Shown: positions 12,191 through 43,834 of the stretch, piece after piece
How positions within the stretch are numbered: position 1 is the first letter of the stretch
How the letters are laid out: each line of letters opens with the position of its first letter
Source of the DNA: an uncultured Mediterraneibacter sp.
GTDB lineage: Bacteria > Bacillota > Clostridia > Lachnospirales > Lachnospiraceae
NCBI GenBank assembly: GCA_944377745.1
Contig: CALWFV010000012.1
Coordinates: 1-64,000 of the forward strand
Length of the DNA stretch: 64,000 nucleotides
Direction: 5' to 3'
The notes under the pieces: model-generated
Database searches by the model: none
Told to the model about the DNA's origin: nothing
The model's input: only the letters and a program-made list of their open reading frames with translations
Program-made: the position numbers and the translations under genes

Positions 12191-12244
12191 AATTTATCAG
12201 ACGATCCGTTTTCCGTATTGTAATATCGGATGAAATATTGTAAT
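12191..12244 (-). promoter_or_regulatory. AraC-type direct-repeat operator and -10, GPH symporter promoter
   Basis: On the plus strand TATTGTAAT occurs twice, at 12216-12224 and 12236-12244, a 20-bp period. On the minus strand the promoter-proximal half-site is followed by exactly 19 nt and TAAATT (12191-12196), a -10-like hexamer. The symporter ATG is 76 nt from the operator. The same arrangement recurs at four other units in this window. Confidence 0.7.
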
Positions 12245-12245
12245 T

Positions 12246-15002
12246 TTAACCTTTCGTCTCTTTTCGATGCTTTTCATTCAGAGCGTCGATCACGGCCTGG
12301 TAGAGCGGACGGGCCTCCGCCGCCATCTGGATCAGATCCGCCACTGTCATGCCGAAGGCAAATTTGATCATGGGATCATCCAGCATTCCCGGACTGAGTT
12401 CGTCGAACATTTTCCTGCCCAGCTCATCTTCCACCAGCTCGCCAAGGGTGGAATCCAGTGAATATTTCTCTGTTTCCAGGCAGGTCTGCGTATCATACTC
12501 ATAGTGATAGTTTCCGGAACCCACCGTGATCTCATCTTCTTTCTCCGGAAGGCGGATCACAGCCGACGTATTCGCGGGGATCTCCACATCCACGCAGATC
12601 TTTCCGCCGCGGCAGCTCCACGCGCTCCGGATCGTGCCGTATATGGATTCAAAGGACGCAGACACCTCTGTCATTCCTTTTGTTAGTGTAGGGCAGATCA
12701 GGATCTTCCTGTACCCCGGCTCCAGGCTCCGGATCCCCGCCACTTTTTCATAGAGCCAGCTTCCGATGGAGCCGTATGCGTAATGGTTCAGGGAATTCAT
12801 GCCGGACTCGTCAAAGTCCCCGTTCGGAAGGATGGAATTCCACCTCTCCCAGATCGTCGTTGCGCCTTTCTTCACGGCATAGAACCATCCGGGGAAATCT
12901 TCTTTCATAAATATCTCATCCGCAAGGTCATGGAGGCCGTTTTCCGACAGGCAGTGGCACAGGTAAGGCGTGCCGACAAAGCCGGTAGTCAGGTGATTGT
13001 GGTGGGCGCCGATATTTGTTTCCAGCGTCTCCAGAATCCGTTTCCGAAATTCCGGTTTTATCAGGTCAAAATGCAGCATCAGCACACAGTCGGTCTGGGT
13101 CTCGCTGACCAGGCGGCCGCTTCCCGTCACGAATTCGAAGTTGATCGCCTCCCGGATCTTCTCATACAGTTTCCCGTATTTTTCAGAATCTTCCTGATAC
13201 CCCAGCTCTCCCGCGGCATCCCGGACGATCCTGGTGGAATAGGCATAGTAGGCGTTGGCGACCAGATATCTGTCCGTTCCGCCGGTACGGTCCGTACTTC
13301 CCGATTCGATATCCAGCGCCAGCCAGTCCCCGTACTGGAACCCGGTCTGCCATAAGCCGTTTTCTGATACTCTGGCGTGGATGTAATCTACCCACTGCCG
13401 CATCATCGGATATTGTTCTCTCAGCATCTCTTTATCCCCGTATACCTGATAGAGGGTCCAGGGGATGATGGTCGCGGCGTCGCTCCATGCCGCCGCGCCG
13501 TCCTGGTTCCCCAGAATGTTTGGCACTACATGGGGAACGCCCCACTGATCCGTGGTTTCCGCAGCCATATCCCGGAGCCACTTCCGGAAGAACCGCGCCG
13601 TGTTGAAATTATAGGAAGCCGTGCCGCAGAATACCTGCGCGTCCCCTGTCCATCCCAGACGCTCGTCCCGCTGCGGGCAGTCGGTGGGGATATCGAGGAA
13701 ATTGCTTCTCTGGCCCCACTGGATGTTGCTCTGAAGCTGGTTGACAAGCGGATTGTCCGAATGAAATGTCCCAGTCTCCTGCATATCCGTATGGAGCGCG
13801 CAGGCCGTAAAGCACTCTGCCTCCACGTCGCTGCCCGCGCCTTCCACACAGATATACCGGAATCCGTGGAACGTAAAGTGCGGCATTACGGTCCTGCCGA
13901 CCATATCCTCACCGTAGATGTAAGTGTCTGTGCATCTTGCGGTGCGCAGATTTTCCGTATAGAAATTTCCGTCTTTATCCAGCGTCTCCGCATGGCGGAT
14001 GACCAGTCTGTCCCCAGTCAGTTTCGGCAGTTTTACTTCTACCAGTCCCGCCATGTTCTGCCCGAAATCAAAAACGATTTCTCCTTTGGGCGTCACGATC
14101 TTCTCTTTTGGGGCAAACCGCCGGGTCACGCGGACCGGTTCGGATTCCTGTGCCGTGATATGTCCGGGTTTCTCCGGCTCACCAAAGAGGACCGCGGCTC
14201 CCGCTTCCTGCTTTTCTACCGTATAGTCCTGGGTTTCTCCGTGGTAGATCTCTGAGAAACGGATTGCTCCCGTCTCTACTTTCCAGTCCGTATCTGTCAC
14301 GATCTCTTCCATATTCCCGTCCTCATATTCGATCCGGATCATCGCGGACAGAGCGGTTTTCTTCCCGTAATTATCCGGCTTGGCGTCAAAGCCCAGTTCT
14401 CCCTTATACCAGCCGTTTCCCACAGTGACAGCGATCTCGTTTTCTCTTTCCAGAAGTTCCGTGATATCATAGGTCTGGTACTGGATCCGGTTGTGGTAAG
14501 AAGTCCAGCCCGGCGCCAGAAAGCAGTCTCCCGCTTTCTTCCCGTTGACACTGGCTTCATACACGCCGCAGGCAGTCGCATAGAGCCTCGCCCGTTTTAC
14601 CGGCTTCTCTGCCGTAAAATGTCTGACATACACCGGACACGCCGTTTCCTCCTCCGGCAGAGAATGGGTGATCCATTTTCCTTTCCAGTTCTCCTCCCGC
14701 AGGATCCCCGTTTCAAAGGCGCCTGTCGCCTGCTCCAGCCCGCCGGTATTATCCAGGACACTGACCTGGACCTGGTATACGCTCATGGGCTCCAGCGGCT
14801 TTCCCCCGTAGGGGATCAGAACAGACTGATCACTTTTTACGCAGCCGCTGTCCCACATCAGCTTTCCGCCTCCGGTCACCTGGATCTGATAAGCTGTCTG
14901 CACCAGATCCTGGCGGCTGCTTTTGATCTTCCACGAAAAACGCGGGGGATTGTCAATCCCGATAGGGTTCTCTCTGTACTCGATCCTGAAATCATATAAC
15001 AT
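12246..15002 (-). CDS. Alpha-L-rhamnosidase, GH78
   Basis: This 918-residue cytoplasmic enzyme should release terminal alpha-L-rhamnose from glycosides by inversion. Domains in order are N-terminal beta-sandwiches (about 1-330), the (alpha/alpha)6 catalytic barrel (about 400-760) and a C-terminal beta-domain. The acidic DCPQRDERLGWTGDAQ cluster lies near 438-452, and the catalytic-base type Glu is in ATTIWERWNS near 715. No signal peptide is present. After the normal C-terminal domain there is an extra helical tail (about 845-918, DSTLGELVEDELG ... MLDDPMIKFAFGM) that is shared with the paralogue at 34308. It is co-directional with GH3 (72-nt gap). Confidence 0.93.
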   Translation of the reverse strand: MLYDFRIEYRENPIGIDNPPRFSWKIKSSRQDLVQTAYQIQVTGGGKLMWDSGCVKSDQSVLIPYGGKPLEPMSVYQVQVSVLDNTGGLEQATGAFETGILREENWKGKWITHSLPEEETACPVYVRHFTAEKPVKRARLYATACGVYEASVNGKKAGDCFLAPGWTSYHNRIQYQTYDITELLERENEIAVTVGNGWYKGELGFDAKPDNYGKKTALSAMIRIEYEDGNMEEIVTDTDWKVETGAIRFSEIYHGETQDYTVEKQEAGAAVLFGEPEKPGHITAQESEPVRVTRRFAPKEKIVTPKGEIVFDFGQNMAGLVEVKLPKLTGDRLVIRHAETLDKDGNFYTENLRTARCTDTYIYGEDMVGRTVMPHFTFHGFRYICVEGAGSDVEAECFTACALHTDMQETGTFHSDNPLVNQLQSNIQWGQRSNFLDIPTDCPQRDERLGWTGDAQVFCGTASYNFNTARFFRKWLRDMAAETTDQWGVPHVVPNILGNQDGAAAWSDAATIIPWTLYQVYGDKEMLREQYPMMRQWVDYIHARVSENGLWQTGFQYGDWLALDIESGSTDRTGGTDRYLVANAYYAYSTRIVRDAAGELGYQEDSEKYGKLYEKIREAINFEFVTGSGRLVSETQTDCVLMLHFDLIKPEFRKRILETLETNIGAHHNHLTTGFVGTPYLCHCLSENGLHDLADEIFMKEDFPGWFYAVKKGATTIWERWNSILPNGDFDESGMNSLNHYAYGSIGSWLYEKVAGIRSLEPGYRKILICPTLTKGMTEVSASFESIYGTIRSAWSCRGGKICVDVEIPANTSAVIRLPEKEDEITVGSGNYHYEYDTQTCLETEKYSLDSTLGELVEDELGRKMFDELSPGMLDDPMIKFAFGMTVADLIQMAAEARPLYQAVIDALNEKHRKETKG

Positions 15003-15074: not shown

Positions 15075-17738
15075 TCATGCAAATCTCGCCATTGTGCGGA
15101 TCAGCGCCGCCACATTTTCCCTGAGTCTGGCAGGATCGATCCTGCCCTCTTCCAGACCTTTTAAAATCTGGTCTGTGTAAGTATTGTCATTCGATCCCGG
15201 CGTAATCCAGCATTTTCCCGCCTGGACCATGGCGGCGACATCCACCGTGTCATAGGTGGTCCAGTCTGTCATGACAAAACCGTCAAACCCGTTCTCTTCT
15301 CTTAAGAGTCCCATGATCAGCTCTTCGTCCGCTGCCGTCGGACAGCCGTTCACTGCATTGTACGCGGTCATAACGCTTGCCGGCATATGGATCTCCATGG
15401 CATATTCAAATGTGCGGAAATATATTTCCCGAATCGCTCTCTCGGAGATCAGACTCTGGTTCCGCTTTCTGGATGATTCGCAGTTGTTTCCGATCAGATG
15501 TTTATAACAGCCTGCGGTTCCCGCGCTCTCCATCCCCCTGGCGTAGTATCCTGCCATCACGCCTGACAGGTACGGGTCTTCCGAAAAATATTCCGGCTGG
15601 CGTCCGTTCAGGGGATTGCGGTGGATGTTAAACGCCGGCGCAAGGATCAACGGGATCCCCAGCTCTTTTGCCTCCTCCCCGATCACCTTTCCGGTCTCTT
15701 CGCAGAGCGCTTTGTTAAAGGATGCGCAAAGCACCGCGCCGGAAGGCATCCCGATATTTTTTACATTCAGATTGACGCCGCTGTTCCCGTCGCTTACCGG
15801 GAAATCCGGAAGGCCGTACCCTTCCAGCCGGAAGACTCTCCCGGCTTCCCCGATCCCTTCCATTCCCCATCCCGCAGAGGCACAGACCGTAAGGCGCGCC
15901 AGCTCAGCGGGCGTAAGCTGCTCTGCGAATGCTCCGGCGAGCTTCGGGTCTTTCCGTACCTCATCGAACATGATCCTGGAGCCCTGCTCCTGAATGCGTT
16001 CCTGAATGCGTTCGGTCAGGCTCTTTCCTGCAGCATAGCTGCAGCGCTCCTGATAGGGCAGGAAAGTCGTTTTCCCGGGTACGACTCCCGAAAATTCTCC
16101 CGCGGGCCATGTGCCTTCAGGATCTTTTCTGGACAGGCGGGGAAAGGTTTTCCCGCACTTCATCAGATGCTCCGTCTTCTTAACGATTCTTTTTTCACTT
16201 ACGGAAACGCTGCCGCACTGTTCCGCGTCCGCACTGTTTCCCGCATAGATCCGGTACTCTCCGGCTGAAAGAATGTAAGCTTTCTCCTCCTCGGAAAAGG
16301 AGGTCAGCATTTTTACCGGCACATAGATACCGATCCTCTGTTCCTCTCCCGGTGCCAGTTCCTTGGTCTTCTCAAAAAATACCAGCTCTTTTTCCGGCTG
16401 TTCCAGATCGGTTTCCGGCTTCCCGATATAGATCTGAAGCACTTCTTTTCCGGCTCGCTCTCCTGTATTTTGGATCACCGCCTCCGCTTTCAGCGCTTCT
16501 CCGTCAAAAGAGAATGCCCCGCACCGGGTCTCGAACTCCGTATAGCTCAGACCGAATCCGAAGGGATAAGCTTCCTTCTTCCCAAAGGTTTTAAAATACC
16601 GGTAGCCAACGTAGATATCTTCCTCATAACAGGTGTCGATATAAACCGTATCCTCCGACGTCAGGCGGGGCTTGTCCGCGCAGTCGTAGAAGTTTTTTGA
16701 CGACGGAATGTCAAAATAGTCCAGCGCCCATGTATCCGGGAGTTTTCCCGACGGATTCACATTCCCGCTCAGGATATCCAGCAGCGCCGGTCCCGCGAGC
16801 ATCCCTGCAAATCCCAGATATACAAGCCCTTTCACCTGATACTTTTCAGCAAATGCGACGTCGATCGGGTACCCTGTATTTAACACGGCGATGGTGTTGG
16901 GAAATACTTCTGAGACTCCCCGAATCAGATTCTCTTCCTCATCGTTCAGGTAATATTCTCCCTTTGCGGACGATGCGTCCTGATTCTCCCCCGCCGCCCG
17001 GGTCAGGAAAATGATCGCCGTATCCGAGACTTCTTTCGCCCTCTCCATCATCTCCGCCGGAGGAAGAACGTCCCGGTCGCAGCCGTAGAAAGAGACAAGC
17101 TCCTCATTCAGCGAATAATCCCGGTCTGCCCGGACAGCTTCCAGAAAGTTCACGCTGTATCTCGGATTGATCTTGCCTGCTCCGACGGCGCCGATGCGGA
17201 ATTCATGGACGCCTTTCCCAAACAGGTTCAGCACGGAACCTTTCGCAAGCGGCAGGATATTTCCTTCATTTTTCAGAAGCACGATCCCTTCCCTTGCAGC
17301 CTGAAGCGCTGTCTGTTCGTGTGCGGCATACTCCGGTTTTGGTTCTGTCTTTTCCACTCCCCGGACGGTGAAATCCTGCGGTTCCATCACATTGCCGTCT
17401 GCGTCCGCATAGCCTTCGATATGGAGCTGATAACTCTTTCCATATTCGGTAACCCTGCCGCGAAGGGGGAGCCCCAGCACCCACATATTCCCCATGACCG
17501 CCATATACTGGCTGACACAGCCTTCCACCGGCGCCCCGTCCAGCAGCACTGTGCCCTCCGCATTTGGATCCATCGGCTTGGTCCACATCAGCAGCAGACA
17601 GCCGGACAGCTTCCGGTCCAGCATATAGTACAGCCCGTCAATATCGTGGAAATCATATTCCAGCGGACTGATCTCAAAAAGCATCGGTTTCTGATCTTTC
17701 GCAGTAAGGATCTCACCGATCGCATCTTCCATTCCCAT
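15075..17738 (-). CDS. GH3 beta-glycosidase with inverted domain order
   Basis: The 887-residue enzyme has GH3 domains in swapped order. The (alpha/beta)6 sandwich domain comes first, with AAREGIVLLKNEGNILPLAK near 150. The fibronectin-III-like domain follows (YPFGFGLSYTEFE near 390). The (alpha/beta)8 barrel is last, with DGNSGVN, the KH pair in CYKHLIGNNCE near 745, and the nucleophile Asp in FVMTDWTTYD near 823. This permuted layout is known from Ruminococcus albus-type beta-glucosidases. No signal peptide is seen. The start at 17738 has GGAGG 9-10 nt upstream. It is the first gene behind operator 17876-17904; the exact sugar is unknown. Confidence 0.9.
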   Translation of the reverse strand: MGMEDAIGEILTAKDQKPMLFEISPLEYDFHDIDGLYYMLDRKLSGCLLLMWTKPMDPNAEGTVLLDGAPVEGCVSQYMAVMGNMWVLGLPLRGRVTEYGKSYQLHIEGYADADGNVMEPQDFTVRGVEKTEPKPEYAAHEQTALQAAREGIVLLKNEGNILPLAKGSVLNLFGKGVHEFRIGAVGAGKINPRYSVNFLEAVRADRDYSLNEELVSFYGCDRDVLPPAEMMERAKEVSDTAIIFLTRAAGENQDASSAKGEYYLNDEEENLIRGVSEVFPNTIAVLNTGYPIDVAFAEKYQVKGLVYLGFAGMLAGPALLDILSGNVNPSGKLPDTWALDYFDIPSSKNFYDCADKPRLTSEDTVYIDTCYEEDIYVGYRYFKTFGKKEAYPFGFGLSYTEFETRCGAFSFDGEALKAEAVIQNTGERAGKEVLQIYIGKPETDLEQPEKELVFFEKTKELAPGEEQRIGIYVPVKMLTSFSEEEKAYILSAGEYRIYAGNSADAEQCGSVSVSEKRIVKKTEHLMKCGKTFPRLSRKDPEGTWPAGEFSGVVPGKTTFLPYQERCSYAAGKSLTERIQERIQEQGSRIMFDEVRKDPKLAGAFAEQLTPAELARLTVCASAGWGMEGIGEAGRVFRLEGYGLPDFPVSDGNSGVNLNVKNIGMPSGAVLCASFNKALCEETGKVIGEEAKELGIPLILAPAFNIHRNPLNGRQPEYFSEDPYLSGVMAGYYARGMESAGTAGCYKHLIGNNCESSRKRNQSLISERAIREIYFRTFEYAMEIHMPASVMTAYNAVNGCPTAADEELIMGLLREENGFDGFVMTDWTTYDTVDVAAMVQAGKCWITPGSNDNTYTDQILKGLEEGRIDPARLRENVAALIRTMARFA

Positions 17739-17850: not shown

Positions 17851-17904
17851 AGGATATCAAAATATGAGCGCTTTGTATTACATTATTGAATTTAAAATTG
17901 TAAT
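17851..17904 (-). promoter_or_regulatory. AraC-type direct-repeat operator and -10, GH3/GH78 promoter
   Basis: Half-sites TATTACATT (17876-17884) and AATTGTAAT (17896-17904) have a 20-bp period. The distal half and its flank (AATTGTAATTTTGACC) closely match the symporter operator. On the minus strand 19 nt separate the proximal half from TATCCT (17851-17856). The proximal half is the weakest match of the five operators. Confidence 0.65.
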
Positions 17905-17975: not shown

Positions 17976-19172
17976 ATGATCACTGATTTAGAAGCGTTCT
18001 GCCGCCTGTTTTATGCATCCTTCGCGATCCCCGTCAGCTATTATCATATTCCCTCCGGGGACAGCGGTTCTTTTCCTGCTGTCCTGGGCGATCAGTCCCT
18101 TTTTAAAAATCCCCCTTCCGGATTTTTCCATTTTCAACAAAATCCGGATTATTTTATCTCGGAGTCGTTTGGATATTTCGGAAGCATCCAGGTTCCCTCT
18201 AAGGAAAGCGTGATCACCGTTGGCCCGGTTTTCAGCACGCCCGTGTCGGACGCTGCGCTCCACAGCTTCATGCTGGAGTGGGCGATCAGTTCCGATCGCA
18301 AGGAGGAGCTCTCACAGATTTTATCGACGATCCCTCTTCTGTCCATCAATCAGTTCCTTCAGACCCTTGCGTATCTTCATCTCTGTCTGAATGATGAGCA
18401 GATCGACATCGGATCTCATTTCGGGCTTGAGAGTGCGAAGGTAGTCAGCAGTTTTTCCAACATCCATTCGAATGAAGTGATCCGTGCGAAGGAAACCCGG
18501 CATTTCCATAACACCTATTTCTTTGAACGCCAACTGACAAAGTGTATCCAGGACGGGGACCTTCCCGGCCTGAACAGGCTGTTGGAAGATTCCGCGGAAC
18601 TGTCCGGGGGCGTCCTTGCCGATAATTCTCTCCGGCAGGAAAAGAATATCTTCATCACGACCATCGCTCTGGTGACCAGAAGCGCCATCTCCGGAGGGAT
18701 GGACATGGAACAGGCCTATATGCTGGCCGACCTGTATATCCAGGAATGCGAGCGTTCCCAGGATATCGCCCATATCTCCACTTTGAACTACACCATGCTG
18801 GCAGACTTTACGGAGCGGGTGTCCCAGACCAAGATCCCCCAGGGAATGTCCCCGGAAGTCTTCAAATGCATCCAGTTTATCTCCCACCATATCAATGAAC
18901 CGATCCAGGTGGGGGACGTGGCGGAACACATCGGCAGGAGCCGCTCCTATCTGACAAATAAATTTAAGAAAGAACTCGGGTTTGACGTGAGCAGTTTTAT
19001 CATGAGATGCCGTCTGGAAGAAGCAAAGAGCCTTCTCACCTATTCGGATAAAACATTAAGCGAGATCAGCGCCTATCTCTGCTTCTCCAGCCAGTCCTAT
19101 TTTCAGAATATATTTAAAAAGAAATACGGTGTCACGCCTCTGAACTACCGGAAGCAGACTCAGAAGGTGTGA
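17976..19172 (+). CDS. AraC-family transcriptional regulator, carbohydrate module 1
   Basis: The 398-residue protein has a sensory N-terminal domain of a type I do not recognise (about 1-130). A helical middle region follows (about 175-285, with HFHNTYFFERQLTK). The two helix-turn-helix motifs of AraC proteins come last (about 290-393: QVGDVAEHIGRSRSYLTNKF and YLCFSSQSYFQNIFKKKYG). AAAGGAG lies 8 nt before the ATG. It is divergent from the GH3/GH78 unit. Its DNA-binding half is nearly the same as that of the regulator at 43872, so both probably read the 20-bp-spaced repeats. The effector is unknown, presumably a glycoside or sugar. Confidence 0.9.
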   Translation: MITDLEAFCRLFYASFAIPVSYYHIPSGDSGSFPAVLGDQSLFKNPPSGFFHFQQNPDYFISESFGYFGSIQVPSKESVITVGPVFSTPVSDAALHSFMLEWAISSDRKEELSQILSTIPLLSINQFLQTLAYLHLCLNDEQIDIGSHFGLESAKVVSSFSNIHSNEVIRAKETRHFHNTYFFERQLTKCIQDGDLPGLNRLLEDSAELSGGVLADNSLRQEKNIFITTIALVTRSAISGGMDMEQAYMLADLYIQECERSQDIAHISTLNYTMLADFTERVSQTKIPQGMSPEVFKCIQFISHHINEPIQVGDVAEHIGRSRSYLTNKFKKELGFDVSSFIMRCRLEEAKSLLTYSDKTLSEISAYLCFSSQSYFQNIFKKKYGVTPLNYRKQTQKV

Positions 19173-25438: not shown

Positions 25439-25469
25439 GGAACCATCAAAAAGAAAGGTGGTAGAACTT

Positions 25470-26135: not shown

Positions 26136-26147
26136 GGGGGCTGGAAA

Positions 26148-31621: not shown

Positions 31622-31636
31622 ATCTGCTCCTTCCGG

Positions 31637-31657: not shown

Positions 31658-31697
31658 ACCTTCTCCAGTGTTTCTCCTGTCTTCTTCTGTCTTTCTT

Positions 31698-34262: not shown

Positions 34263-34307
34263 TCTTCTCCCTGCTGCTCATTCTTATTTTTTTATTTTTC
34301 CGGCTTA

Positions 34308-37055
34308 TCATTCTTCCGGCTGCTCGTTCAGCGCTTTTAAAACCGCCTCGTAGACCGGACGGATCTCCGGTGCGGAACTGATGCCTTCTGAGAGCGCCAT
34401 CCGTTTCGCATATTCGATCATCGGATTGTGCACAAGATCCGGCACCATCTGCTCCATCATTTCCATGCCAAGGGGTTCTGCCAGGATCTCTCCCAGCTTG
34501 CTGTCCATCGTAAACTTAAGTTCTCTCAGACAAGTCGTCGTCTCATATTCGTAGCTGTAAGTTCCCGAGCCGAGTTCCAGCGCCTCTTCCTTCTCCGGCA
34601 GGTACAGGACCGCCGTCGTGTTTGCCGGTATCTGCACCTCCACACGGATCTTCCCTTTCCGGCAGCTCCAGCGGGAGACGATTTTCCCGTAGGGGGATTC
34701 CAGCTCTGTCCTCGCCTCCTCGATCCCCTGGACGAACATGGGTCTGATATAGAACCTGTGATATCCCGCTTCGATCTGGTTGATGCCGCCGATCTTCCGG
34801 TACATCCAGTCCCCGATGGCTCCGTTTGCATAATGGTTCATGGAGTTTAATCCCGGATCCTGCATGGTACCGTCGGGAAGGATGGCGTCCCATCTCTCCC
34901 AGAGCGTGGTCGCTCCTTTGTTGACCGCGTAGAGCCACGAGGGCAGGTCTTCCCTCATAAACAGGACGGATGCGGTATCGTGGGCGCCGTTGTCCGAGAG
35001 GGCGTGGCACAGATAAGGCGTCCCCACGAATCCTGTCGTCAGATGGTTCTTATGGTTCTCTATGTTTGTGACCAGAGCTTTCGTGATCGTCTCCCTGTCT
35101 TTTTCCTTTGCAAGTCCGAAGTGCAGGGACAGCACGCACCCGGTCTGTGTCTCGCTGACGATGCGCCCCCTGGATGTATAATATTCCTCCCGGAATGACT
35201 GGAGCGTTTCTTCTCTCAGCACTTCATAGTAAGCCGCTTCTCCCGGTTTTTTCAGCACACGGGCGGTCTTTGCGACAAGATCTGTCACATAGATATAGTA
35301 GGCATTCGCCACCAGATAGATATCCGTAGCCCCCACGCTCTTATCGCCCATCTCCCGGTCAAGTGCCAGCCAGTCGCCGTACTGATAGCCGCTCATCCAC
35401 AGCCCGTTCTCATTGACGTGGTTGTGGATGTAATCTACCCACTCATGCATACACTTCCAGTTTTCCTCTAATATCCGCACATCACCGTAAGTCTGATATA
35501 CCACCCAGGGGATGATGACCGCCGCATCGCTCCATGCAGCAGAGCTGTAAGTTCCCTGGATATCCGGCACGATATGAGGGACACCCTGCTCCAGGGAAGA
35601 GGCAGCCGATACGTCCCGCATCCATTTGGTAAAGAACAGCGCCGTCTCCCGGTTGAACGCCGCTGTCCACGAGAAGACCTGGGCATCTCCCATCCATCCG
35701 AGCCGCTCGTCTCTCTGGGGGCAGTCGGAGGGGATGTCGAAGAAGTTATCTCTTAGCCCCCATGTAATATTGCTCTGGAGCTGATTGACCTTTTCATTGG
35801 AGCAGTGGAAATCTCCGGTCTTTCTCATATCCGAATGCATCACGCAGGCGGTAAACATCTCCGGCTTCGGATCCTTGATCCCTGTCACGGCCGCATAGCG
35901 GAACCCGTGGAATGTAAAATGGGGCATCAGCACCTGTTCTTCCCCGTTTAAAATATAAGTATCCTCGGACTTCGCCGTGCGCAGGGTATCCGGATAGAAT
36001 ACGCCGTCTTTATCGAGAACTTCCGCATGGCGGACCGTGATCTTCTGTCCCGCTTCTCCTTTGATCCGGATCTCCACCAGACCGGTCAGGTTCTGTCCGA
36101 AATCTACAAGGACATTCCCCGCCGGATCCGTGAACACCCGCTTCGCTTCCAGCCTTTCGGTCACCCGCACCGGTTCGTTGACCTGAGGCGTCAGCACCGC
36201 CGGGTCAAACTCCGGTTCCAGTACAGCCGATACGCTGCCTTCCCGGATCTCCGGCGCATTCGTATCGATGGTCTCGCCATTGTATATCTCGCTGTACCGG
36301 ATCTGGCCAGTGCGCACCTGCCACGTCTCATCCGTGGCGATCACTTCCACTGTGCCGTCCTCATAGGTGACATGAAGCTCCGCCCATGCGGCGGTTCTGT
36401 CGCCGTACCGGTCCGGTTTGCAGTCGAAGCTTAAGATTCCCTTGTACCAGCCGTTCCCGACGGTCAGTTCCAGCAGGTTCTCCCCTGTATGGGTTCTCAG
36501 CTCTTCTGTCACATCATAAAACTGATACTGGAGGATCTTGTGGTAATCCGTCCATCCGGGAGCCATATATGCGTCTCCCGCTTTCTTCCCGTTTACATAC
36601 GCCTCATATACTCCATGGGCCGTCGCATAGAGATACGCCGACTTCACCGGCTTTTTCGGCTCAAATCTGCGGGAAAAGACCGGACACGCCGTCTCTTCCT
36701 TCGGGAAATCGTGAGTGATCATCTTTGCCCGGAAATGCGTACTGTCAAATATCCCCGTAGTAAAGACCGCCTCTGCCTGTGCGCTGCTGCCGTAGTTATC
36801 CGTGATCTGCAGGGATACGCGGTACTCCTTCTCTTCTTCCAGCTCCGGTCCGCCGTAGGGAACTAAGACTGACTGATCACTTTCCACTTTCCCGCTGTCC
36901 CAGACGCAGCTTCCATCGCATTCCACAACGATCCGCCGGGAAGTCTGCACCACATCCTTCTCATCCGATGCGATCTTCCACGAAAAGCGGGGGATCCTCA
37001 CCGCAAGTCCTTTCGGCTGTTCTCTGTATTCAATCCTGAAATCATAAATCTTCAT
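34308..37055 (-). CDS. Alpha-L-rhamnosidase, GH78 (paralogue)
   Basis: The 915-residue protein is alignable with the GH78 at 12246 over its whole length. Features are the N-terminal sandwiches, the DCPQRDERLGWMGDAQ acidic cluster near 440-455 and the catalytic Glu in ATTLWERWDA near 719. It ends with the same helical extension (DSKLGEILAEPLG ... LVHNPMIEYAKRM, about 845-915). There is no signal peptide, so it acts on imported rhamnosides. AAAAGGAG precedes the start. It belongs to the symporter-GH78-GH3-GH3 unit of module 2. Confidence 0.93.
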   Translation of the reverse strand: MKIYDFRIEYREQPKGLAVRIPRFSWKIASDEKDVVQTSRRIVVECDGSCVWDSGKVESDQSVLVPYGGPELEEEKEYRVSLQITDNYGSSAQAEAVFTTGIFDSTHFRAKMITHDFPKEETACPVFSRRFEPKKPVKSAYLYATAHGVYEAYVNGKKAGDAYMAPGWTDYHKILQYQFYDVTEELRTHTGENLLELTVGNGWYKGILSFDCKPDRYGDRTAAWAELHVTYEDGTVEVIATDETWQVRTGQIRYSEIYNGETIDTNAPEIREGSVSAVLEPEFDPAVLTPQVNEPVRVTERLEAKRVFTDPAGNVLVDFGQNLTGLVEIRIKGEAGQKITVRHAEVLDKDGVFYPDTLRTAKSEDTYILNGEEQVLMPHFTFHGFRYAAVTGIKDPKPEMFTACVMHSDMRKTGDFHCSNEKVNQLQSNITWGLRDNFFDIPSDCPQRDERLGWMGDAQVFSWTAAFNRETALFFTKWMRDVSAASSLEQGVPHIVPDIQGTYSSAAWSDAAVIIPWVVYQTYGDVRILEENWKCMHEWVDYIHNHVNENGLWMSGYQYGDWLALDREMGDKSVGATDIYLVANAYYIYVTDLVAKTARVLKKPGEAAYYEVLREETLQSFREEYYTSRGRIVSETQTGCVLSLHFGLAKEKDRETITKALVTNIENHKNHLTTGFVGTPYLCHALSDNGAHDTASVLFMREDLPSWLYAVNKGATTLWERWDAILPDGTMQDPGLNSMNHYANGAIGDWMYRKIGGINQIEAGYHRFYIRPMFVQGIEEARTELESPYGKIVSRWSCRKGKIRVEVQIPANTTAVLYLPEKEEALELGSGTYSYEYETTTCLRELKFTMDSKLGEILAEPLGMEMMEQMVPDLVHNPMIEYAKRMALSEGISSAPEIRPVYEAVLKALNEQPEE

Positions 37056-37078
37056 TCTGTCATTCTCCTTTTACCAGC

Positions 37079-37116
37079 AAAGCCGGCACTCCGGTCGTTC
37101 CGGAAGCGCCGGCTTT
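37079..37116. terminator. Two-tier hairpin between symporter and GH78
   Basis: AAAGCCGGC (37079-37087) pairs with GCCGGCTTT (37108-37116), and an inner TCCGG/CCGGA extends the stem. A T6 run follows on the plus strand, where nothing is transcribed. On the minus strand, the coding direction, only TTTGCTGG follows. It is thus a weak or partial terminator that could lower GH78/GH3 expression relative to the symporter. Confidence 0.5.
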
Positions 37117-37167
37117 TTTAGTCTGCTCTTTCTCCACAGGGCGGTCAGCCCGTTTCCTATGTATCTC

Positions 37168-38598
37168 TTATTTTGTCTCGTTCTTTGCAGCCCTGCGCGC
37201 TGCGATTTCTTCTCTCATCTTCGGCAGTTTCTCTTCCAGGTCGAACTTCAGGAAGATCACGAACATGATCAGGTTGATCACCACCGGAAGATAGTTTGAA
37301 AATCCGTAGATGGAATATCTCATGGATGTGGTAGCCACTTCCAGTGTGGCGTCGTATGCGCCGATGGCAAGGAATGCGGACAGGATCGCCGCTCCGAGAC
37401 CGTTTCCTACTTTGCTTCCGAATCCGATGGCGCCGCCGGACATTGCCACCAGCTTCTTGTCATATTTCCACTCGTTGTAATCGATAGTCATAGAAGTCAG
37501 CACACCGTACAGACTCATCATCGGGATCTGTATGAAGCTTCCGAGAAGGCTTGTGACCACAAAAACCGTAAAGTTCGTCGGCACAAAGCAGCGGATGCCC
37601 GCAAGTACGGCTGCGCCCAGCAGTCCGATGGAAATCGTTCTCTTGATCCCCAGTCCTGCGATGATCGGCTTGGAAAGCACGAACCCCACAATTGTCGCCA
37701 GCATTCCCACTGTACCAATAATACCTACCAGGTTATCATTTCCGAAGATCCATTTACAATAATATGTACCGCCGGACGCTGAGATCCCGCTTGTGATGCT
37801 CGTGATCAGATTGAACAGCAGGATGATCACCCAGTATTTGTTTTTCAGAAGCATGGTCATTGCTTCTTTAAACGGTACCGGCTCCTCCTCTTCCTCCGGC
37901 TGCCCTTCTGCCTCGTCCTCTTCATAATCACAGGCAAATTTTGACTTCATACCGTTGTGGCAGCAGATCGCGAACAGGACAAGTACGAGTACTGCCAGCA
38001 CTACGCCGTATTTGACCCATGCTGACTGTGTGCCGCCCAGCATATTTGTAACCGGGATCGTCAGGATCGAGATCAGCATTCCCGCGCCGTAGTTGGCAAC
38101 CGCACGGAACAGTCCGATGCTTCCCCTCTCGCTTAAACTCCGTGTACGCACTGTCATAACTGCCGCGAACGGAGTTGCGATAAATGTATACAATCCTGCT
38201 GATAAGATCAGGTTTGTTACCAGCGCGTAGATCACGCCCGGGATCTGCCCTGCCTGGATCGGCACGGTAAACATCAGCACAACGATGGCGGCAGCCGGTA
38301 TGATCTGTGGGAAGATCCATTTAAAATACTTATGGTCTCCGCCTTTTGAATGATCGATCAGATTTCCTGCGATGACGTCCGTAAAGGCGTCGATCACTTT
38401 TGAAATCGCCAGTATAATGCCGACGCTTCCTACCGCCAGCCCTACTTTATCTGTATAAAAGTAGTTTAACTGTCCCACGATGTTTGCCATCAGGCCCAGC
38501 GCCAACTGGCCGCTGAAGTCAGAGAAATAATCTCTTTTGCGCATGACGCGCCTTGCCCCCTGCTTGTCGTACCGGGGTGCGTTCTTGTCTTTTGCCAT
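37168..38598 (-). CDS. GPH-family sugar:cation symporter (paralogue)
   Basis: The 476-residue carrier with about 12 membrane segments starts at 38598 (GGAGGAGAGG upstream). It has MRKRDYFSDFSGQLALGLMA and the DAFTDVIAGNLIDHSKGG motif after segment 2. An acidic loop (YEEDEAEGQPEEEEE) lies in the middle cytoplasmic loop. It is a paralogue of the 10737 carrier. The operator/promoter 38732-38785 precedes it by about 160 nt, so it leads a unit with GH78 and two GH3 enzymes. Imported substrate: probably a rhamnose-bearing glycoside. Confidence 0.9.
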   Translation of the reverse strand: MAKDKNAPRYDKQGARRVMRKRDYFSDFSGQLALGLMANIVGQLNYFYTDKVGLAVGSVGIILAISKVIDAFTDVIAGNLIDHSKGGDHKYFKWIFPQIIPAAAIVVLMFTVPIQAGQIPGVIYALVTNLILSAGLYTFIATPFAAVMTVRTRSLSERGSIGLFRAVANYGAGMLISILTIPVTNMLGGTQSAWVKYGVVLAVLVLVLFAICCHNGMKSKFACDYEEDEAEGQPEEEEEPVPFKEAMTMLLKNKYWVIILLFNLITSITSGISASGGTYYCKWIFGNDNLVGIIGTVGMLATIVGFVLSKPIIAGLGIKRTISIGLLGAAVLAGIRCFVPTNFTVFVVTSLLGSFIQIPMMSLYGVLTSMTIDYNEWKYDKKLVAMSGGAIGFGSKVGNGLGAAILSAFLAIGAYDATLEVATTSMRYSIYGFSNYLPVVINLIMFVIFLKFDLEEKLPKMREEIAARRAAKNETK

Positions 38599-38731
38599 CT
38601 TTCCTCTCCTCCTGTCTCCGATGCATCCGCCGCACAATGCCTTTCCCCTCGCTGCCTGTAGTCAGAGCGTGCCTTCGGAAAATTTATTTTTCTCTGCGGA
38701 CTGTTGATCTGTTCCGCTCTCTTCGATCATT

Positions 38732-38785
38732 ACTATATCGCTTTACGTTTCAATTTTATTGCAAAATAATTCTCAGAATTGTAAT
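38732..38785 (-). promoter_or_regulatory. AraC-type direct-repeat operator and -10, symporter/GH78/GH3 unit
   Basis: TATTGCAAA (38757-38765) and AATTGTAAT (38777-38785) have a 20-bp period. On the minus strand 19 nt separate the proximal half from TATAGT (38732-38737), a good -10. There is no -35 match, as expected for an activator-dependent promoter. Confidence 0.72.
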
Positions 38786-38838: not shown

Positions 38839-41169
38839 TTATCTCAGCAGGACTTCAATCTCGTGAGTCCTGCCGTCCTCGTAGACCGGAAGCGTCTCCC
38901 TGTCACAGGGTTTCCCGTCCGCTATGATGACCGGCTTCCCGTTTTCGATCCATTCCGGATTGCGGATCACGATATGGTAGTCCGCTCCACGGAAATGTCT
39001 GGTCACTTCCGCCTCTTCCCACTCTGCCGGGAAACAGGGCGAGATCCGCAGTCCCTCATAATCCCTCTTCACGCCCAGGACGCCTTCATACAGTCCCATC
39101 AGGCACCATGCGGACGTCCCGGTGGTCCAGGACTGGTAGGACTTCCCGTAATATCCCGGATTGGTGGAATAGCAGTTGGTAAACACATAGGGCTCTGCTC
39201 CGGACCGCACGGACGGATTCTTCTCACTGTCCGGCATGATCTTCTTTAACGTCTCCACCGCTTTCGTCCCTCTGCCTGCACAGCAGTCCATCAGGATCTT
39301 GAAGCCTGTGGCATGGCAGTACACGCCTCCGTTCTCAAAGAGTCCCGGCAGCATACCGGACATACGCCCCACATGGGGATCGTACTCCGGGTAAGGAGGC
39401 AGATTCAGCGGGAATCCGAAATCCTGTTCCATACTATCCACCGCTTCCAGAACTTTCGGCAGCTTTTCTTCGTCCGTCACGCCGGCAAGCACCGCCCATG
39501 TCTGGGCGTTCAGGTAGATCCTGCTGCCCCTGCTCTCTTTGCTTCCTATATTTCCCTTCTCGCTCAAAGCCCTTGCATACCAGTTTCCGTCCCATGCATG
39601 CCGGTTGATATCTGCTTTCAGTTTATCATATTCATCTCTCAGAAAGCGGGCATATCCCTTATCCCCTGCATACTCCATCAGCCGCGCCAGCTCCCGCAGC
39701 GCCAGGCAGAACTGGTGGGACAGCATCACAGACTCCGCCTCCGGATCGTCCGTAACATTGAGCGCGTCGTTCCAGTCGGCAAAATAGATCTTCACCAGAC
39801 CGTGTTTCCCTTTGTCGATGATCAGACGGTCCACCGCCGCTTTCACATGCTCCAGTACGGACGCCTCGCCGCCGTCCTGCCACTCCACGCTTTTCGTAAG
39901 GAGCGAACAGTCGCCTGTCTCCTTGATCAGCTCGCACACCGCCCAGATGATCCAGAAGGGCTGGTCGGAGTAACGCGTGTCATCATATGGATACCATGTG
40001 AGCACGCCATGCCCGTCCCGGAACTGATGCCGCAGGCACTCCAGGATCTCTTCCTGCGCTTTCTCCTGCCGGTAGTTTAAAAGCCCCACTGCGATCTGCA
40101 GGTTGTCCCTCACGCCTTTCTTCCCGACAATGCAGAAATCCGCCTGTTTTTTCACCCAGTTGTTCATGATGTGATTGATCTTCTCATCCGGCGTCTTCAC
40201 GGAGAGAGACCGGATCTTCTCATAATTGTATGCTTCCGCCTCTCGCCACTCCTGCTCTGTGCTCTCTGCATCCGCATACCGCTCCATCGTACGGCACGCT
40301 TCCTCACAGGAGGCGCTGATCCCGAATACGACCCGGATCTCTTTTTCCTCTCCGGGCTTCAGTGTGATCTTATGCTGCAGCACGCCGCCCAGGATAAACA
40401 GGGACGCCTCCGAATCCGTACAGTCTCTCCCCTGCATGACCACATCCGGTCTCTGGAACAGGGCGCAGGCGGATGCATCCGGCAGCGTCAGCGTACTGGT
40501 CGTCCCGCAGAATTTCGTCAGATCTCCGTCCCATGCGTACACCGGTTCCGAAGACGCCAGAAAGCCGTTGTACAGTCCGTGGGGTGCAAATGGATGAGAG
40601 GAAGCACAGTAGACGCCGTTTAACTTCCGGTCAAATCTTGTCTTCATACAGCGGTACATTTCATAATATCTTGGATAGGAAAATCCCTCCAGATTGAAGC
40701 TCACTGCGGAAAATACACTGAGATTCTTCTCTTCTTCCGCCGTATTTTTCAGCTTCAGTGTCCATACCTCGTGATGACCGCTTTTCGGCACAAAGATCCG
40801 CCAGCTTCCCTCGACACCGTTCTTTTTTGATCGGATCAGGGAATGCCCGATGCTGTGGGTGCAGCAGTAATCCTCCACCTCTGTATTCAGCGGTCCGAGG
40901 CCGATGTTCCAGCACTCGTTGCTCTCATCATCCCGCAGATAGACGTATCTGGCGTCGTCCCGGTTGATCATGCACATCTCTGCCTTCTCGCTTAAGTAAT
41001 AGCTGCGCCCGTGACCCACCTGGGAAATCTGGGCGCAGTAGCGGTCCTCATTCCACAGGTAGTTGTACCAGTACCGGGGCGTCCTCGGATCATAGATCCG
41101 ACAGCCGTTCCCGTCTTCCGTGAACTCATACAGTTTTCTGTCCTCTGCCTGTTTCGTCTCAACACTCAT
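38839..41169 (-). CDS. GH94-family glycoside phosphorylase
   Basis: The 776-residue protein matches GH94, which splits beta-linked disaccharides with phosphate. Domains are an N-terminal beta-sandwich (YGxGxx-type strands, about 10-300), a helical linker and an (alpha/alpha)6 barrel. The catalytic Asp is in IYFADWNDAL near 464. The later QSWTTGTSAWCLMGLYE segment is typical of phosphorylases. A signal peptide is absent. Cellobiose, laminaribiose and other beta-glucosyl donors are possible and cannot be separated by eye. A phosphorylase saves ATP when sugars are imported intact, which fits the symporters. Confidence 0.85.
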   Translation of the reverse strand: MSVETKQAEDRKLYEFTEDGNGCRIYDPRTPRYWYNYLWNEDRYCAQISQVGHGRSYYLSEKAEMCMINRDDARYVYLRDDESNECWNIGLGPLNTEVEDYCCTHSIGHSLIRSKKNGVEGSWRIFVPKSGHHEVWTLKLKNTAEEEKNLSVFSAVSFNLEGFSYPRYYEMYRCMKTRFDRKLNGVYCASSHPFAPHGLYNGFLASSEPVYAWDGDLTKFCGTTSTLTLPDASACALFQRPDVVMQGRDCTDSEASLFILGGVLQHKITLKPGEEKEIRVVFGISASCEEACRTMERYADAESTEQEWREAEAYNYEKIRSLSVKTPDEKINHIMNNWVKKQADFCIVGKKGVRDNLQIAVGLLNYRQEKAQEEILECLRHQFRDGHGVLTWYPYDDTRYSDQPFWIIWAVCELIKETGDCSLLTKSVEWQDGGEASVLEHVKAAVDRLIIDKGKHGLVKIYFADWNDALNVTDDPEAESVMLSHQFCLALRELARLMEYAGDKGYARFLRDEYDKLKADINRHAWDGNWYARALSEKGNIGSKESRGSRIYLNAQTWAVLAGVTDEEKLPKVLEAVDSMEQDFGFPLNLPPYPEYDPHVGRMSGMLPGLFENGGVYCHATGFKILMDCCAGRGTKAVETLKKIMPDSEKNPSVRSGAEPYVFTNCYSTNPGYYGKSYQSWTTGTSAWCLMGLYEGVLGVKRDYEGLRISPCFPAEWEEAEVTRHFRGADYHIVIRNPEWIENGKPVIIADGKPCDRETLPVYEDGRTHEIEVLLR

Positions 41170-41257
41170 CGTCTCTATAACTCTCCTGTCTACTGTTTTT
41201 ATGATCGGTGCTTTTCATAATTCCGGTTTTGTAATTTCCGGTTTTTCACCGCCGCGC

Positions 41258-43687
41258 TTATCCGAGAACGATCCGGTACTGGATCCCCGGTACGGAGCCG
41301 TCCAGTGCGAACCGGACTTCGTCTCCGCATTTCTCTCCGGCCATTTCCGCGATCACTTCGCCCACCGGATCTAAGATCTCAAGCTTCGCGTCATCCGCTT
41401 TTACGCAGATACCGCCCTCGAGCGTCTCAGCGTAGAGCTTTCCTTTAAATTCCACTGCGGCAAAGGGGATGCCCATCATCTCCGGTCCCTGTCCATATAC
41501 CGTCTCGTCCATACCGGTAGTGCCCATTGCCGTCAGGACATACTCTTTCGTCCCGTCAAGCCGCGCCTCATCTTTCGCGATCAGGGCAAGGGTGATCCTT
41601 TCATTTTGCGATTCCACGGTTACCCGTTCTGACAGCCGGATCTCTCTTTCCGGCGAGCCGCTGAAATACCCGCAGTACGGTGTATGTACGGCGAAACGTG
41701 CATGATCCGGATCAAAGACGATCTCTTTTGTATCCGAGATCAGTTTCCCATCCACATATCCTGTGCCGTCCGGGAGAACGCCCCATTCTTTCATGGCTCC
41801 GTCCATGATCTTCGCCAGATTCCGGTAATCTCCGCCCTCTGACGTCTCTGCGATCTTGTCAAATACAAGCGCTTTCTCTCCAAGATGGACGCCCGGGCAG
41901 ATCTCTCTCGTATCTTTCGCCGCCTTTTTCAGACGGTTTTCTTCTTTGTATCTGCGGAATGCGTCCCTGTATTCTGACCATGCATAATATACCCCATGCT
42001 TTGCGTCAGAAAGGTCCGCCCCGTTGAAGAATCCGGCATTTACTGCCACGTCTGCATTTCCCTGATAGCTGTCCCCGCCGTCCAGAAACACATTTCTCAT
42101 AGAGGTGATATACGGGAAAAATGTTGTCGGCATGGAGTGAAACAAAGGCAGCGACTTCAGGTCATTCTGCGTATATACCACATCCACACAGTGCTCTGCC
42201 ACGGACACCAGACCTTTCAGGAATACGGAAGCCATGAATCCCCACTGGCACGCCACCGCCGGATCATTGTATGCGTCAAATACATTCAGGATCTCGTCTG
42301 CCGGCTGATCGTCCCATTTCTCGGAAGTATGGTGGTTGTAGAGGATCAGGCCGTCCCAGTCATTTAAGCAGGCGTAGGCAATGGTCTGTACAAAGGCTGT
42401 GGAGTGGAAGGGATGCAGGCCGTACTCGTTCCATTCACTGAGCATGAACGGCTTCCCGTTTACGACAGCCACGGAACCGAGACTTAAAAGCGTAGTCCCC
42501 ATAGATCCGACCCCTCTCTGCATGGTCAGCGGATTTGCGGACACATACTCCGCCGGACCCGCCACCAGATAAGTATTGCCCTGCACCGGAAGGAGCGGAT
42601 GGTTAAAATAACAGTTGTTCTCCATCAGATCCCCGTCCGTATGCCCGTACACGTCCGCTGCCCCGGCGATCAGGTTGCTGGTAACGATCGGCACTTTCGC
42701 TCCCAGAGAATGGATATAGTCTTTCATATCCTGATAAAATTTCCGGTTCATATAGATCCCGAATTCCATAAAGTCCGCATATCTCGCCGGACCTTCCGCC
42801 GCATCCCACTGCCCCTGCGGGTCGTTCACAGGCTGATAGAAGCTTCCCTCAATCCCCCGCACGGTTCCCTGTGCCGGATCCTCTTCTTCTCCCAGTGCGC
42901 AGCATCCGTCATAAGTCCATGCCTCTTTGAGACGCTCCCTCGTATAATACTTCATCAGCAGGAACTCATTGAAGCGCTTCTGCACTTCCTCGCGGTACGG
43001 CTTCATCTCCTCTTCCGCGTCGCCGCCCATATTTCCCTTGATCGCCGTGTCCTCGTTGTTGATCTGGATCGTCACCACCGCCGGGTCGTCGATCAGCGCC
43101 ATGCCGGTATAGGGGTTCACATGGCAGAGAAGCTCTTTCGCGTACTCTTTCTGCAGTTGGATCATACGCTCGTTGTACATATAGTAGCGCTTCATACAGG
43201 AAGGGCCTTTCCCCGGATAGTCCAGTCCGTCCGCCTCCTGGAATTCACGCGCCACGATCAGGTCGATATGCAAGTAGATACCCTTCTCTTTCAGCTTCGC
43301 GGCAAAGTAGTCGAAGCGGTCAAGCCCCTCCGGGTTGAATTTCCTGCTTGTTCCCGAGGCATAGTCAAGAAGGGGCGCCTCCCTGCAACTGCTCCAGCTT
43401 CCCGGCTCTTCCCCCACCGGCGCGTCCGCCGCGTGCAGGCGGATGATATTGACGCCCATGCTTGCAAAACGCTCCGCCATCTTGTCCGCCGTCTCGTGGT
43501 CCGGCGTGTTGGAACGTGCCGCCACGTTGAATCCTAAGAATCTCGCCCTTGTGCCGTCCTCAAAATACAGGTGTCCTTTCCTCGTCTCCACAAACCCGTG
43601 CTTTCCCGCCGGGGCGTCCAACAGATGCGAATAGTCGAGGATTCCCCGGTTCGGCTCCGCTTTGTGGATGCGTATGTGCTGTTTCAT
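41258..43687 (-). CDS. Clan GH-A glycoside hydrolase, family not assigned
   Basis: The 809-residue protein has a clan GH-A TIM barrel (about 50-430). An acid/base-type Glu is in VTIQINNEDT near 211, and a nucleophile-type Glu is in FMLSEWNEYG near 417. FLGFNVAARSNTPDHETADK and NIIRLHAAD mark the first strands. The C-terminal third is beta-rich. It resembles GH5-like and newer beta-galactosidase-type families, but I cannot assign one. There is no signal peptide. The start has GGAGG 8 nt upstream and follows operator 43806-43834; it is 88 nt ahead of the GH94 gene, so the pair is likely one unit. Confidence 0.75.
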   Translation of the reverse strand: MKQHIRIHKAEPNRGILDYSHLLDAPAGKHGFVETRKGHLYFEDGTRARFLGFNVAARSNTPDHETADKMAERFASMGVNIIRLHAADAPVGEEPGSWSSCREAPLLDYASGTSRKFNPEGLDRFDYFAAKLKEKGIYLHIDLIVAREFQEADGLDYPGKGPSCMKRYYMYNERMIQLQKEYAKELLCHVNPYTGMALIDDPAVVTIQINNEDTAIKGNMGGDAEEEMKPYREEVQKRFNEFLLMKYYTRERLKEAWTYDGCCALGEEEDPAQGTVRGIEGSFYQPVNDPQGQWDAAEGPARYADFMEFGIYMNRKFYQDMKDYIHSLGAKVPIVTSNLIAGAADVYGHTDGDLMENNCYFNHPLLPVQGNTYLVAGPAEYVSANPLTMQRGVGSMGTTLLSLGSVAVVNGKPFMLSEWNEYGLHPFHSTAFVQTIAYACLNDWDGLILYNHHTSEKWDDQPADEILNVFDAYNDPAVACQWGFMASVFLKGLVSVAEHCVDVVYTQNDLKSLPLFHSMPTTFFPYITSMRNVFLDGGDSYQGNADVAVNAGFFNGADLSDAKHGVYYAWSEYRDAFRRYKEENRLKKAAKDTREICPGVHLGEKALVFDKIAETSEGGDYRNLAKIMDGAMKEWGVLPDGTGYVDGKLISDTKEIVFDPDHARFAVHTPYCGYFSGSPEREIRLSERVTVESQNERITLALIAKDEARLDGTKEYVLTAMGTTGMDETVYGQGPEMMGIPFAAVEFKGKLYAETLEGGICVKADDAKLEILDPVGEVIAEMAGEKCGDEVRFALDGSVPGIQYRIVLG

Positions 43688-43780
43688 CGTATTTTCCTCC
43701 TTTTTCCGGCCGACCTGTGCACGGTAAATCTGCCCGGAGCCACGTTCCGGATTACCGCCTGAGGTAACCTTTGTGGAGAT

Positions 43781-43834
43781 ATCATAGCATCGTATTTTTA
43801 TTTAATATTGCAAAATTCTTCTTAGAATTGTAAG
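43781..43834 (-). promoter_or_regulatory. AraC-type direct-repeat operator and -10, GH-A/GH94 promoter
   Basis: TATTGCAAA (43806-43814) and AATTGTAAG (43826-43834) have a 20-bp period. On the minus strand 19 nt lead to TATGAT (43781-43786). On the plus strand TTGCAA (43808-43813), 17 nt and TAAGAT (43831-43836) could form the promoter of the AraC gene. The operator then covers it, which suggests autorepression. Confidence 0.7.

What the first reader, a model, noticed from the sequence alone, without database searches (positions are those of the whole stretch)
12191..43834. A five-member operator set with fixed promoter geometry defines an AraC regulon for both carbohydrate modules
Seen directly: TATTGYAAW-N11-AATTGTAAK-like direct repeats with a 20-bp period occur at 12216, 17876, 22560, 38757 and 43806, each before a minus-strand carbohydrate unit (symporter; GH3-GH78; GH2; symporter-GH78-GH3-GH3; GH-A-GH94). 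In all five, exactly 19 nt separate the proximal half-site from a -10-like hexamer (TAAATT, TATCCT, TAGAGT, TATAGT, TATGAT). A fixed offset to the promoter is hard to explain by chance in AT-rich gaps. Known: AraC proteins bind two directly repeated half-sites about 21 bp apart that overlap the -35 of activated promoters. Inferred: the two AraC paralogues bind these sites.
Basis: partly seen in the sequence, partly recalled or inferred. Interest (0 to 1): 0.9.

Follow-up and report, generated by a model that had tools for sequence, protein, structure and literature searches.

The report
Two AraC operator codes, one geometry
Five DNA sites with identical spacing stand before five runs of sugar-breakdown and sugar-uptake genes, and the same layout recurs beside related regulator genes in dozens of other bacterial genomes; two sister AraC proteins likely each bind their own version of the site and would switch on their own set of genes.

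Summary
TTRYAAT-N13-TTRYAAT followed by TANNNT exactly 20 nt later occurs at all five places. The exact pattern has four hits in the 3.67-Mb genome, all in this window; the fifth site has one mismatch. In 80 loci holding relatives of the two AraC proteins, the 20-bp period appears upstream of araC in 50, against at most 6 for any other period from 8 to 35. In 42 dereplicated sites chosen by the half-sites alone, the -10 core sits at offset 20 in 34, against at most 6 elsewhere; a likely start A follows at a fixed place in 36.

The interpretation needs one correction: probably not one regulon shared by both modules. The sites split into two subtypes that follow the AraC clade, also in two genomes that hold both clades. 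Sites 12217, 17877 and 22561 are type I (AraC at 17976); 38758 and 43807 are type II (AraC at 43872). Mechanism, inferred: AraC class II activation, helix-turn-helix 2 reading the shared box and helix-turn-helix 1 the variable flank. A one-residue version of that code failed on new loci. Binding and activation are untested. The kind is known; this subfamily's operator was not found in the papers searched.

The parts
12191..12243 (-). Type I site and predicted promoter: TTACAAT-N13-TTACAAT, -10 TAAATT with upstream TG; predicted start A at 12184
   Evidence: LLR +19.5; +16.0
10737..12140 (-). GPH/MFS_2 sugar symporter behind the site at 12217
   Evidence: Pfam PF13347; TIGR00792 above cut-off
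17851..17903 (-). Type I site and predicted promoter: TTACAAT-N13-ATGTAAT, -10 TATCCT with upstream TG
   Evidence: 1 mismatch; LLR +14.2; +11.7
15075..17738 (-). GH3 with permuted domain order, first gene behind the site at 17877
12246..15002 (-). GH78 alpha-L-rhamnosidase, second gene behind the site at 17877
17976..19172 (+). AraC-type regulator 1 (clade I), divergent from the GH3-GH78 genes; likely reader of the type I sites
22535..22587 (-). Type I site and predicted promoter: TTACAAT-N13-TTACAAT, -10 TAGAGT
   Evidence: LLR +15.4; +10.5
19897..22452 (-). GH2 glycosidase behind the site at 22561
38732..38784 (-). Type II site and predicted promoter: TTACAAT-N13-TTGCAAT, -10 TATAGT
   Evidence: LLR -16.0; -12.5
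29051..38637 (-). Symporter, GH78, GH3, permuted GH3 behind the site at 38758
43781..43833 (-). Type II site and predicted promoter: TTACAAT-N13-TTGCAAT, -10 TATGAT with upstream TG; predicted start A at 43774
   Evidence: LLR -19.7; -17.9
38839..43687 (-). 809-aa protein without Pfam or NCBIfam family (weak GH5 likeness) and GH94 phosphorylase behind the site at 43807
43872..45068 (+). AraC-type regulator 2 (clade II), divergent from the 809-aa protein and GH94 genes; likely reader of the type II sites

Best explanation
The five sites are direct repeats with one fixed geometry, TTRYAAT-N13-TTRYAAT-N20-TANNNT, in two sequence subtypes, and two sister AraC proteins likely bind one subtype each and would activate their own carbohydrate module. 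Shown by the calls: the sites, the fixed period and offset, their recurrence beside AraC relatives, and the split into subtypes that follows the AraC clade. Inferred: a dimer places one subunit on each half-site; with a usual 17-base spacer the promoter-side half-site overlaps the place of a -35 box by three to four bases; the protein then contacts RNA polymerase and transcription starts about 33 nt after CAAT, when the N-terminal domain meets an inducing glycoside or sugar. Inferred: helix-turn-helix 2, whose reading helix is nearly the same in all 82 proteins aligned, reads the shared ACAAT box; helix-turn-helix 1, which differs between the clades, reads the bases just upstream, which also differ. 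In the window the AraC at 17976 would serve the sites at 12217, 17877 and 22561, and the AraC at 43872 those at 38758 and 43807.
For: Genome-wide rarity of the full pattern and of the strict pair. Period 20 upstream of araC in 50 of 80 loci at up to one mismatch, at most 6 for other periods from 8 to 35, Markov control 0-1; 50 reading away from araC, 7 toward it. -10 core at offset 20 in 34 of 42 dereplicated sites chosen without regard to a -10, other offsets from 5 to 37 at most 6; TG one base upstream in 19 of 42; A at +33 in 36 of 42, pyrimidine before it in 30 of 42; no conserved -35 hexamer other than the half-site itself. Full-flank scan: 111 sites with pair and -10 in 68 of 80 loci (85 after removing near-copies), 4 inside an ORF of 250 aa or more. 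Of 20 downstream genes that I picked for spread, 17 are glycoside hydrolases or MFS_2 symporters, 2 have no family, 1 is a radical SAM protein. Exact full pattern in 58 congeneric genomes: 15 hits, all near a close AraC relative. Twelve further AraC relatives: 10 carry the full layout, 3 of those 10 near-copies of loci already seen. Subtypes: leave-one-locus-out 44 of 48, window 5 of 5; two genomes with both clades, left out of training: 7 of 7, one of them barely (+1.5). Clade support 100/99 and 100/100.
Against: No binding, expression or start-site data. The two clades are essentially one split on the tree, so subtype and helix 1 differ together partly by descent. A single-residue rule (Arg 323 with a pyrimidine at base 16) fitted but failed on new loci: Arg 3 of 5, Ser 1 of 2. 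Four of 48 sites are misassigned. Of 28 sites from the other clades, 24 score as type I and 4 as type II, so type I may be the family's default rather than a private code. Thirty of 80 loci lack a strict site upstream of araC. Besides the 111 sites with a -10 there are 107 pairs without one in the same flanks; 72 overlap a site with a -10, mostly the same site on the other strand, 35 do not. Cross-binding is not excluded, since the ACAAT box is shared. Activation rather than repression is inferred from layout.
Confidence: 0.78

Rival explanations
1. One shared regulon: both AraC proteins bind all five sites, so that either inducer would turn on both modules.
For: The ACAAT box, period and offset are the same at all five sites and the helix-2 reading helix is nearly identical in both proteins.
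Against: Subtypes differ at bases 16, 17, 19, 20 (divergence 0.71-0.77) and follow the linked AraC in the window (5 of 5) and in two genomes that hold both clades (7 of 7). Of the two clades G002 has only II and its two sites are type II; G069 has only I and its three sites are type I (these genomes share loci with the training set, so this is not independent).
Confidence: 0.15
2. The sites are bound by a different, global regulator, and the AraC genes are neighbours by chance.
For: AT-rich tandem repeats are not proof of an AraC site; no binding was tested.
Against: Exact full-pattern sites occur only beside a close AraC relative: 15 of 15 in 58 genomes. A third AraC paralogue with a changed helix 2 has a changed half-site (TTACTAT/TTGCTAT) in the same geometry, kept in 5 of 6 genomes that hold it.
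Confidence: 0.04
3. The sites are repressor operators: AraC binding over the -35 region blocks RNA polymerase until the inducer arrives.
For: The proximal half-site lies where a -35 would be.
Against: The aligned sites show no conserved -35 apart from the half-site, and a TG before the -10 in 19 of 42, which suits an activator-dependent promoter; in Caldicellulosiruptor AraC tandem sites lie upstream of the promoter elements and are read as activator sites (PMC8579813, passages).
Confidence: 0.07

Closest known systems
AraC/XylS-family class II activated promoters (E. coli AraC at araI1-I2; SoxS, RamA, Rob complexes)
   Same: Two half-sites about two DNA turns apart, the promoter-side one next to or over the -35, double helix-turn-helix protein; the DNA-binding domain matches AraC, SoxS, RamA and Rob structures. 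The araI1-I2 details are recalled.
   Different: Period 20, TTRCAAT boxes, one fixed offset in dozens of genomes, often an extended -10; the N-terminal domain (residues 1-150) has no confident match to a solved fold.
AraC-family rhamnose regulators of Bacillales, Bacteroides and Enterococcus predicted by comparative genomics (PMC3870299)
   Same: Direct-repeat motifs of AraC-family regulators of sugar genes (passages).
   Different: Their motifs are given as unique with 21-bp periodicity; no fixed -10 offset and no paralogue split in the passages seen.
TIGR04094, regulators beside YSIRK surface proteins (EbrB of Enterococcus, Spy1337 of Streptococcus)
   Same: Best NCBIfam match, over residues 74-392 and 77-392; divergent or adjacent target gene.
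   Different: Scores 170.2 and 161.7 lie below the cut-off of 200; targets here are sugar enzymes and symporters. The EbrB paper reports no obvious binding site (PMC3669262, passages); the Spy1337 paper notes two ATTTTT repeats (PMC7098570, passages).
AraC regulators beside glucuronide transporters in gut metagenomes (PMC4732671)
   Same: AraC proteins whose best homologues are YSIRK-type regulators, next to glucuronide transporter and beta-glucuronidase genes (passages).
   Different: No operator or geometry in the passages seen; other substrate.
AraC tandem-repeat regulons of Caldicellulosiruptor (PMC8579813)
   Same: Tandem repeats upstream of promoters of sugar-use genes, predicted activators (passages).
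   Different: Other regulators and motifs; no paralogue-specific split in the passages seen.

Membership tests
AraC/XylS family | C-terminal double helix-turn-helix domain above the Pfam cut-off | tested here: met
   PF12833 70.6 and 66.9 bits against 33.6; PF00165 58.5 and 69.5 against 26.6
AraC class II activated promoter | Half-sites about two turns apart, promoter-side half at the -35 position | tested here: met
   Period 20, -10 core at offset 20
AraC class II activated promoter | Activation through contact with RNA polymerase | not testable with these tools
   needs transcription assays
TIGR04094 (adjacent_YSIRK) | Score at or above the curated cut-off of 200 bits | tested here: not met
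   170.2 and 161.7 bits
TIGR04094 (adjacent_YSIRK) | Neighbouring gene for a YSIRK surface protein | tested here: not met
   the divergent neighbours are a GH3 and an 809-aa protein with weak GH5 likeness
One shared regulon of both AraC proteins | Same operator sequence at both modules | tested here: not met
   two subtypes, window LLR +14.2 to +19.5 and -16.0, -19.7; the ACAAT boxes are shared
One shared regulon of both AraC proteins | Each protein binds all five sites | not testable with these tools
   needs binding assays

The most novel reading that the evidence does not exclude
A whole subfamily of gut-bacterial AraC activators uses one rigid promoter frame (half-site, 20-bp period, half-site, 20 nt, extended -10, start at A) in which helix-turn-helix 2 fixes the shared box and helix-turn-helix 1 sets a private subtype, so that duplicated regulators become insulated by changing helix 1 alone and the targets of hundreds of uncharacterised sugar loci can be read from DNA.
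Probability: 0.4. Interest if true: 0.68.

Novelty: new member of a known kind. Interest (0 to 1): 0.52.

Why it matters
If right, the frame gives a computable operator for a large group of AraC regulators that sit beside glycoside hydrolases and symporters; for one related regulator in print, EbrB, no obvious site was found. It would let one predict which genes of a gut bacterium answer to which regulator, and it gives a natural pair of sister regulators, kept side by side in one genome, in which to test how operator insulation evolves after duplication.

Tried and rejected
Single-residue code: residue 323 against base 16 fitted 37 of 40 loci with Arg (pyrimidine) and 18 of 18 with Ser, Thr or Asp (purine), near-copies not removed, with 8 loci (Pro, Tyr, Lys) outside the rule; on new loci it failed, so I claim nothing beyond the clade level. 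The count 'res323 vs base-4' printed is mis-indexed by one base and is not used.

Sensor domain: the model of residues 1-150 is confident (pLDDT 89.2) but Foldseek gave no match at E 0.001 or below; weak likeness to PAS/dCache folds is not used. The full-length model has pTM 0.45, so only its helix limits are used.

araC-side promoter: a TATAAT-like hexamer lies 30-32 nt from the outer site edge in 14 of 34 sites, which hints at two-way control; not pursued.

Other own-genome paralogues: 30 loci (L028-L057) were searched for the frame with any repeat of 7 of 8 bases. That test is insensitive: it missed both window AraC loci, which were in it. It showed L034, L038 and L040; only L034 was checked in other genomes and held in 5 of 6. 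L038 and L040 were not followed.

Dropped rows: the window's own loci and repeats of the same loci were left out, 12 of 19 loci kept. In one search, six sites resembling window sites were removed before training (54 to 48).

Literature: eight answered searches found no paper describing this operator; the library lacks most subscription papers. Six papers were seen in passages only.

Full report
What is there. The window carries two AraC-type regulators, 17976-19172 and 43872-45068 on the plus strand, 40-41% identical, among minus-strand glycoside hydrolases and two GPH-type symporters (the second symporter scores below the TIGR00792 cut-off but above Pfam's). Each regulator is divergent from hydrolase-type genes. 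In promoter direction they read TTACAAT, 13 bases, TTRCAAT (ATGTAAT at 17877), 20 bases, then a TANNNT hexamer.

More than chance. In the window the repeat gives 9 rows with up to one mismatch against 0.20 expected. In the 3.67-Mb genome the strict pair TTRCAAT-N13-TTRCAAT has four exact matches, all here. A search of TTRYAAT pairs with 3 to 33 bases between them gave 36 rows, against 17 for the reversed pattern. Loosened to one mismatch the TTRYAAT pair alone is not selective: 27 rows against 17.

Relatives. A scan of named genomes with an eight-protein alignment found 244 relatives, of which the best 80 were kept. In the 400 bases upstream of araC the TTRCAAT pair at up to one mismatch occurs at period 20 in 50 of 80 loci, at other periods from 8 to 35 in at most 6, and in Markov sequence in 0 or 1. 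With TTRYAAT 59 sites passed, 42 after removing near-copies. In these, picked without looking for a -10, TANNNT begins 20 nt after CAAT in 34 of 42; the next best offset has 6. TG stands one base before it in 19 of 42. An A lies 33 nt after CAAT in 36 of 42, with a pyrimidine before it in 30 of 42. That is where a start is expected; four of the five window sites have the A (read; 38758 has a C). Over the full flanks of the 80 loci, 111 sites in 68 loci show pair and -10, 85 after removing near-copies; four lie inside a long ORF. A further 107 pairs lack the -10; 72 of them overlap a site that has it. Of 20 downstream genes that I picked for spread, 17 are hydrolases (GH1, 2, 3, 5, 43, 78, 106) or MFS_2 symporters, two have no family, one is a radical SAM protein.

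Control by genome. In 58 genomes of the genus, own included, the exact full pattern has 15 hits in seven genomes, each within about 10 kb of a close AraC relative; these are the same seven that match the second regulator at E 1e-60. The other 51, five of them with more distant AraC relatives, have none. With one mismatch there are 36 rows: 22 in those clusters, 6 elsewhere in the seven genomes, 8 in the other 51; the reversed pattern has 11. So only the near-exact pattern is a safe predictor. Twelve further AraC relatives, found with two distant family members as queries, give a partly outside test: 10 of 12 show the full layout divergent from araC; three of the ten are near-copies of loci already seen.

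Two subtypes. The tree of 82 proteins (78 different) puts the two regulators in separate, fully supported clades. Their sites differ. By majority type I reads YAAAA-TTACAAT-AC at the promoter-side half, type II GTATT-TTRCAAT-AT; bases 16, 17, 19 and 20 differ most, and the base four upstream of the box differs in both half-sites (type I pyrimidine 23 of 28 distal and 27 of 28 proximal; type II purine 21 of 26 and 21 of 26). Those sites were chosen with a -10, so the -10 letters are fixed by choice. A matrix test with sites resembling the window removed (26 and 22 left) places 44 of 48 correctly by leave-one-locus-out. It assigns the window sites at 12217, 17877 and 22561 to type I and those at 38758 and 43807 to type II. 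Of 28 sites from other clades, 24 score as type I, so type I may be the older form. Lachnoclostridium sp. An169 and Candidatus Blautia faecipullorum hold both clades; left out of training, their 7 sites are all assigned to the linked clade, one with a score of only +1.5. The further lines for G002, G008, G046 and G069 agree but are not independent of the training loci.

Protein side. In the model of the first regulator the two reading helices are residues 323-334 and 373-384. The second, FSSQSYFQN-FKK, is nearly unchanged in the family, as is the ACAAT box. The first differs between clades at 320, 323, 326, 327 and 328. A third paralogue elsewhere in the genome, with STESYFIR in helix 2, has TTACTAT/TTGCTAT in the same frame, kept in 5 of 6 genomes. 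This fits helix 2 reading the box and helix 1 the flank, as recalled for AraC. It remains an inference, and a one-residue version of it failed on new loci.

How it likely works. A dimer on the two half-sites, nearly on one face of the DNA, would touch RNA polymerase at the -35 position and recruit it to a -10 that often carries the TG extension. The trigger is unknown; GH78, GH3, GH2 and GH94 enzymes beside symporters suggest rhamnose-bearing or beta-linked plant glycosides. Which sugar is inference only, and signal peptides were not tested.

Place among known things. By family these are AraC/XylS proteins closest to, but below the cut-off of, TIGR04094. The layout is that of class II AraC promoters; AraC-family rhamnose regulators with 21-bp direct repeats are already in print (PMC3870299, passages). 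The new parts are the site of this subfamily, its rigid frame, and the split between sister regulators. The eight answered searches named under Tried and rejected found no description of it.

Noticed in passing
G000:C1:35009-35875 (L034, L189, L219): A third AraC paralogue with a changed helix 2 (STESYFIR) has TTACTAT/TTGCTAT half-sites in the same 20-bp and 20-nt frame, kept in 5 of 6 genomes.
   Followed up: partly
15075-17738 and 29051-31750: Two GH3 proteins have the C-terminal domain before the N-terminal domain (permuted order).
   Followed up: no
41258-43687: 809-aa protein without Pfam or NCBIfam family; weak sequence likeness to GH5 mannanases only. ORFs of about 806-813 aa follow type II sites in several genomes; their homology was not tested.
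   Followed up: partly
8991-10723: A two-component system follows the symporter on the same strand with a 13-base gap, so the predicted promoter at 12191 may also drive it.
   Followed up: no
23640-28658: A response regulator, histidine kinase, ABC ATPase and FtsX-type permease cassette lies between the two modules on the other strand.
   Followed up: no
L077 (G046:C46) and G008:C10:5226-6417: The clade II regulator of G046 is open only from about residue 42 and the clade I regulator of G008 is split in two frames, although sites of both subtypes remain in their clusters.
   Followed up: no
divergent araC promoters of L103-L182: A TATAAT-like hexamer toward araC lies 30-32 nt from the outer site edge in 14 of 34 sites, hinting at control of araC from the same site.
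   Followed up: partly
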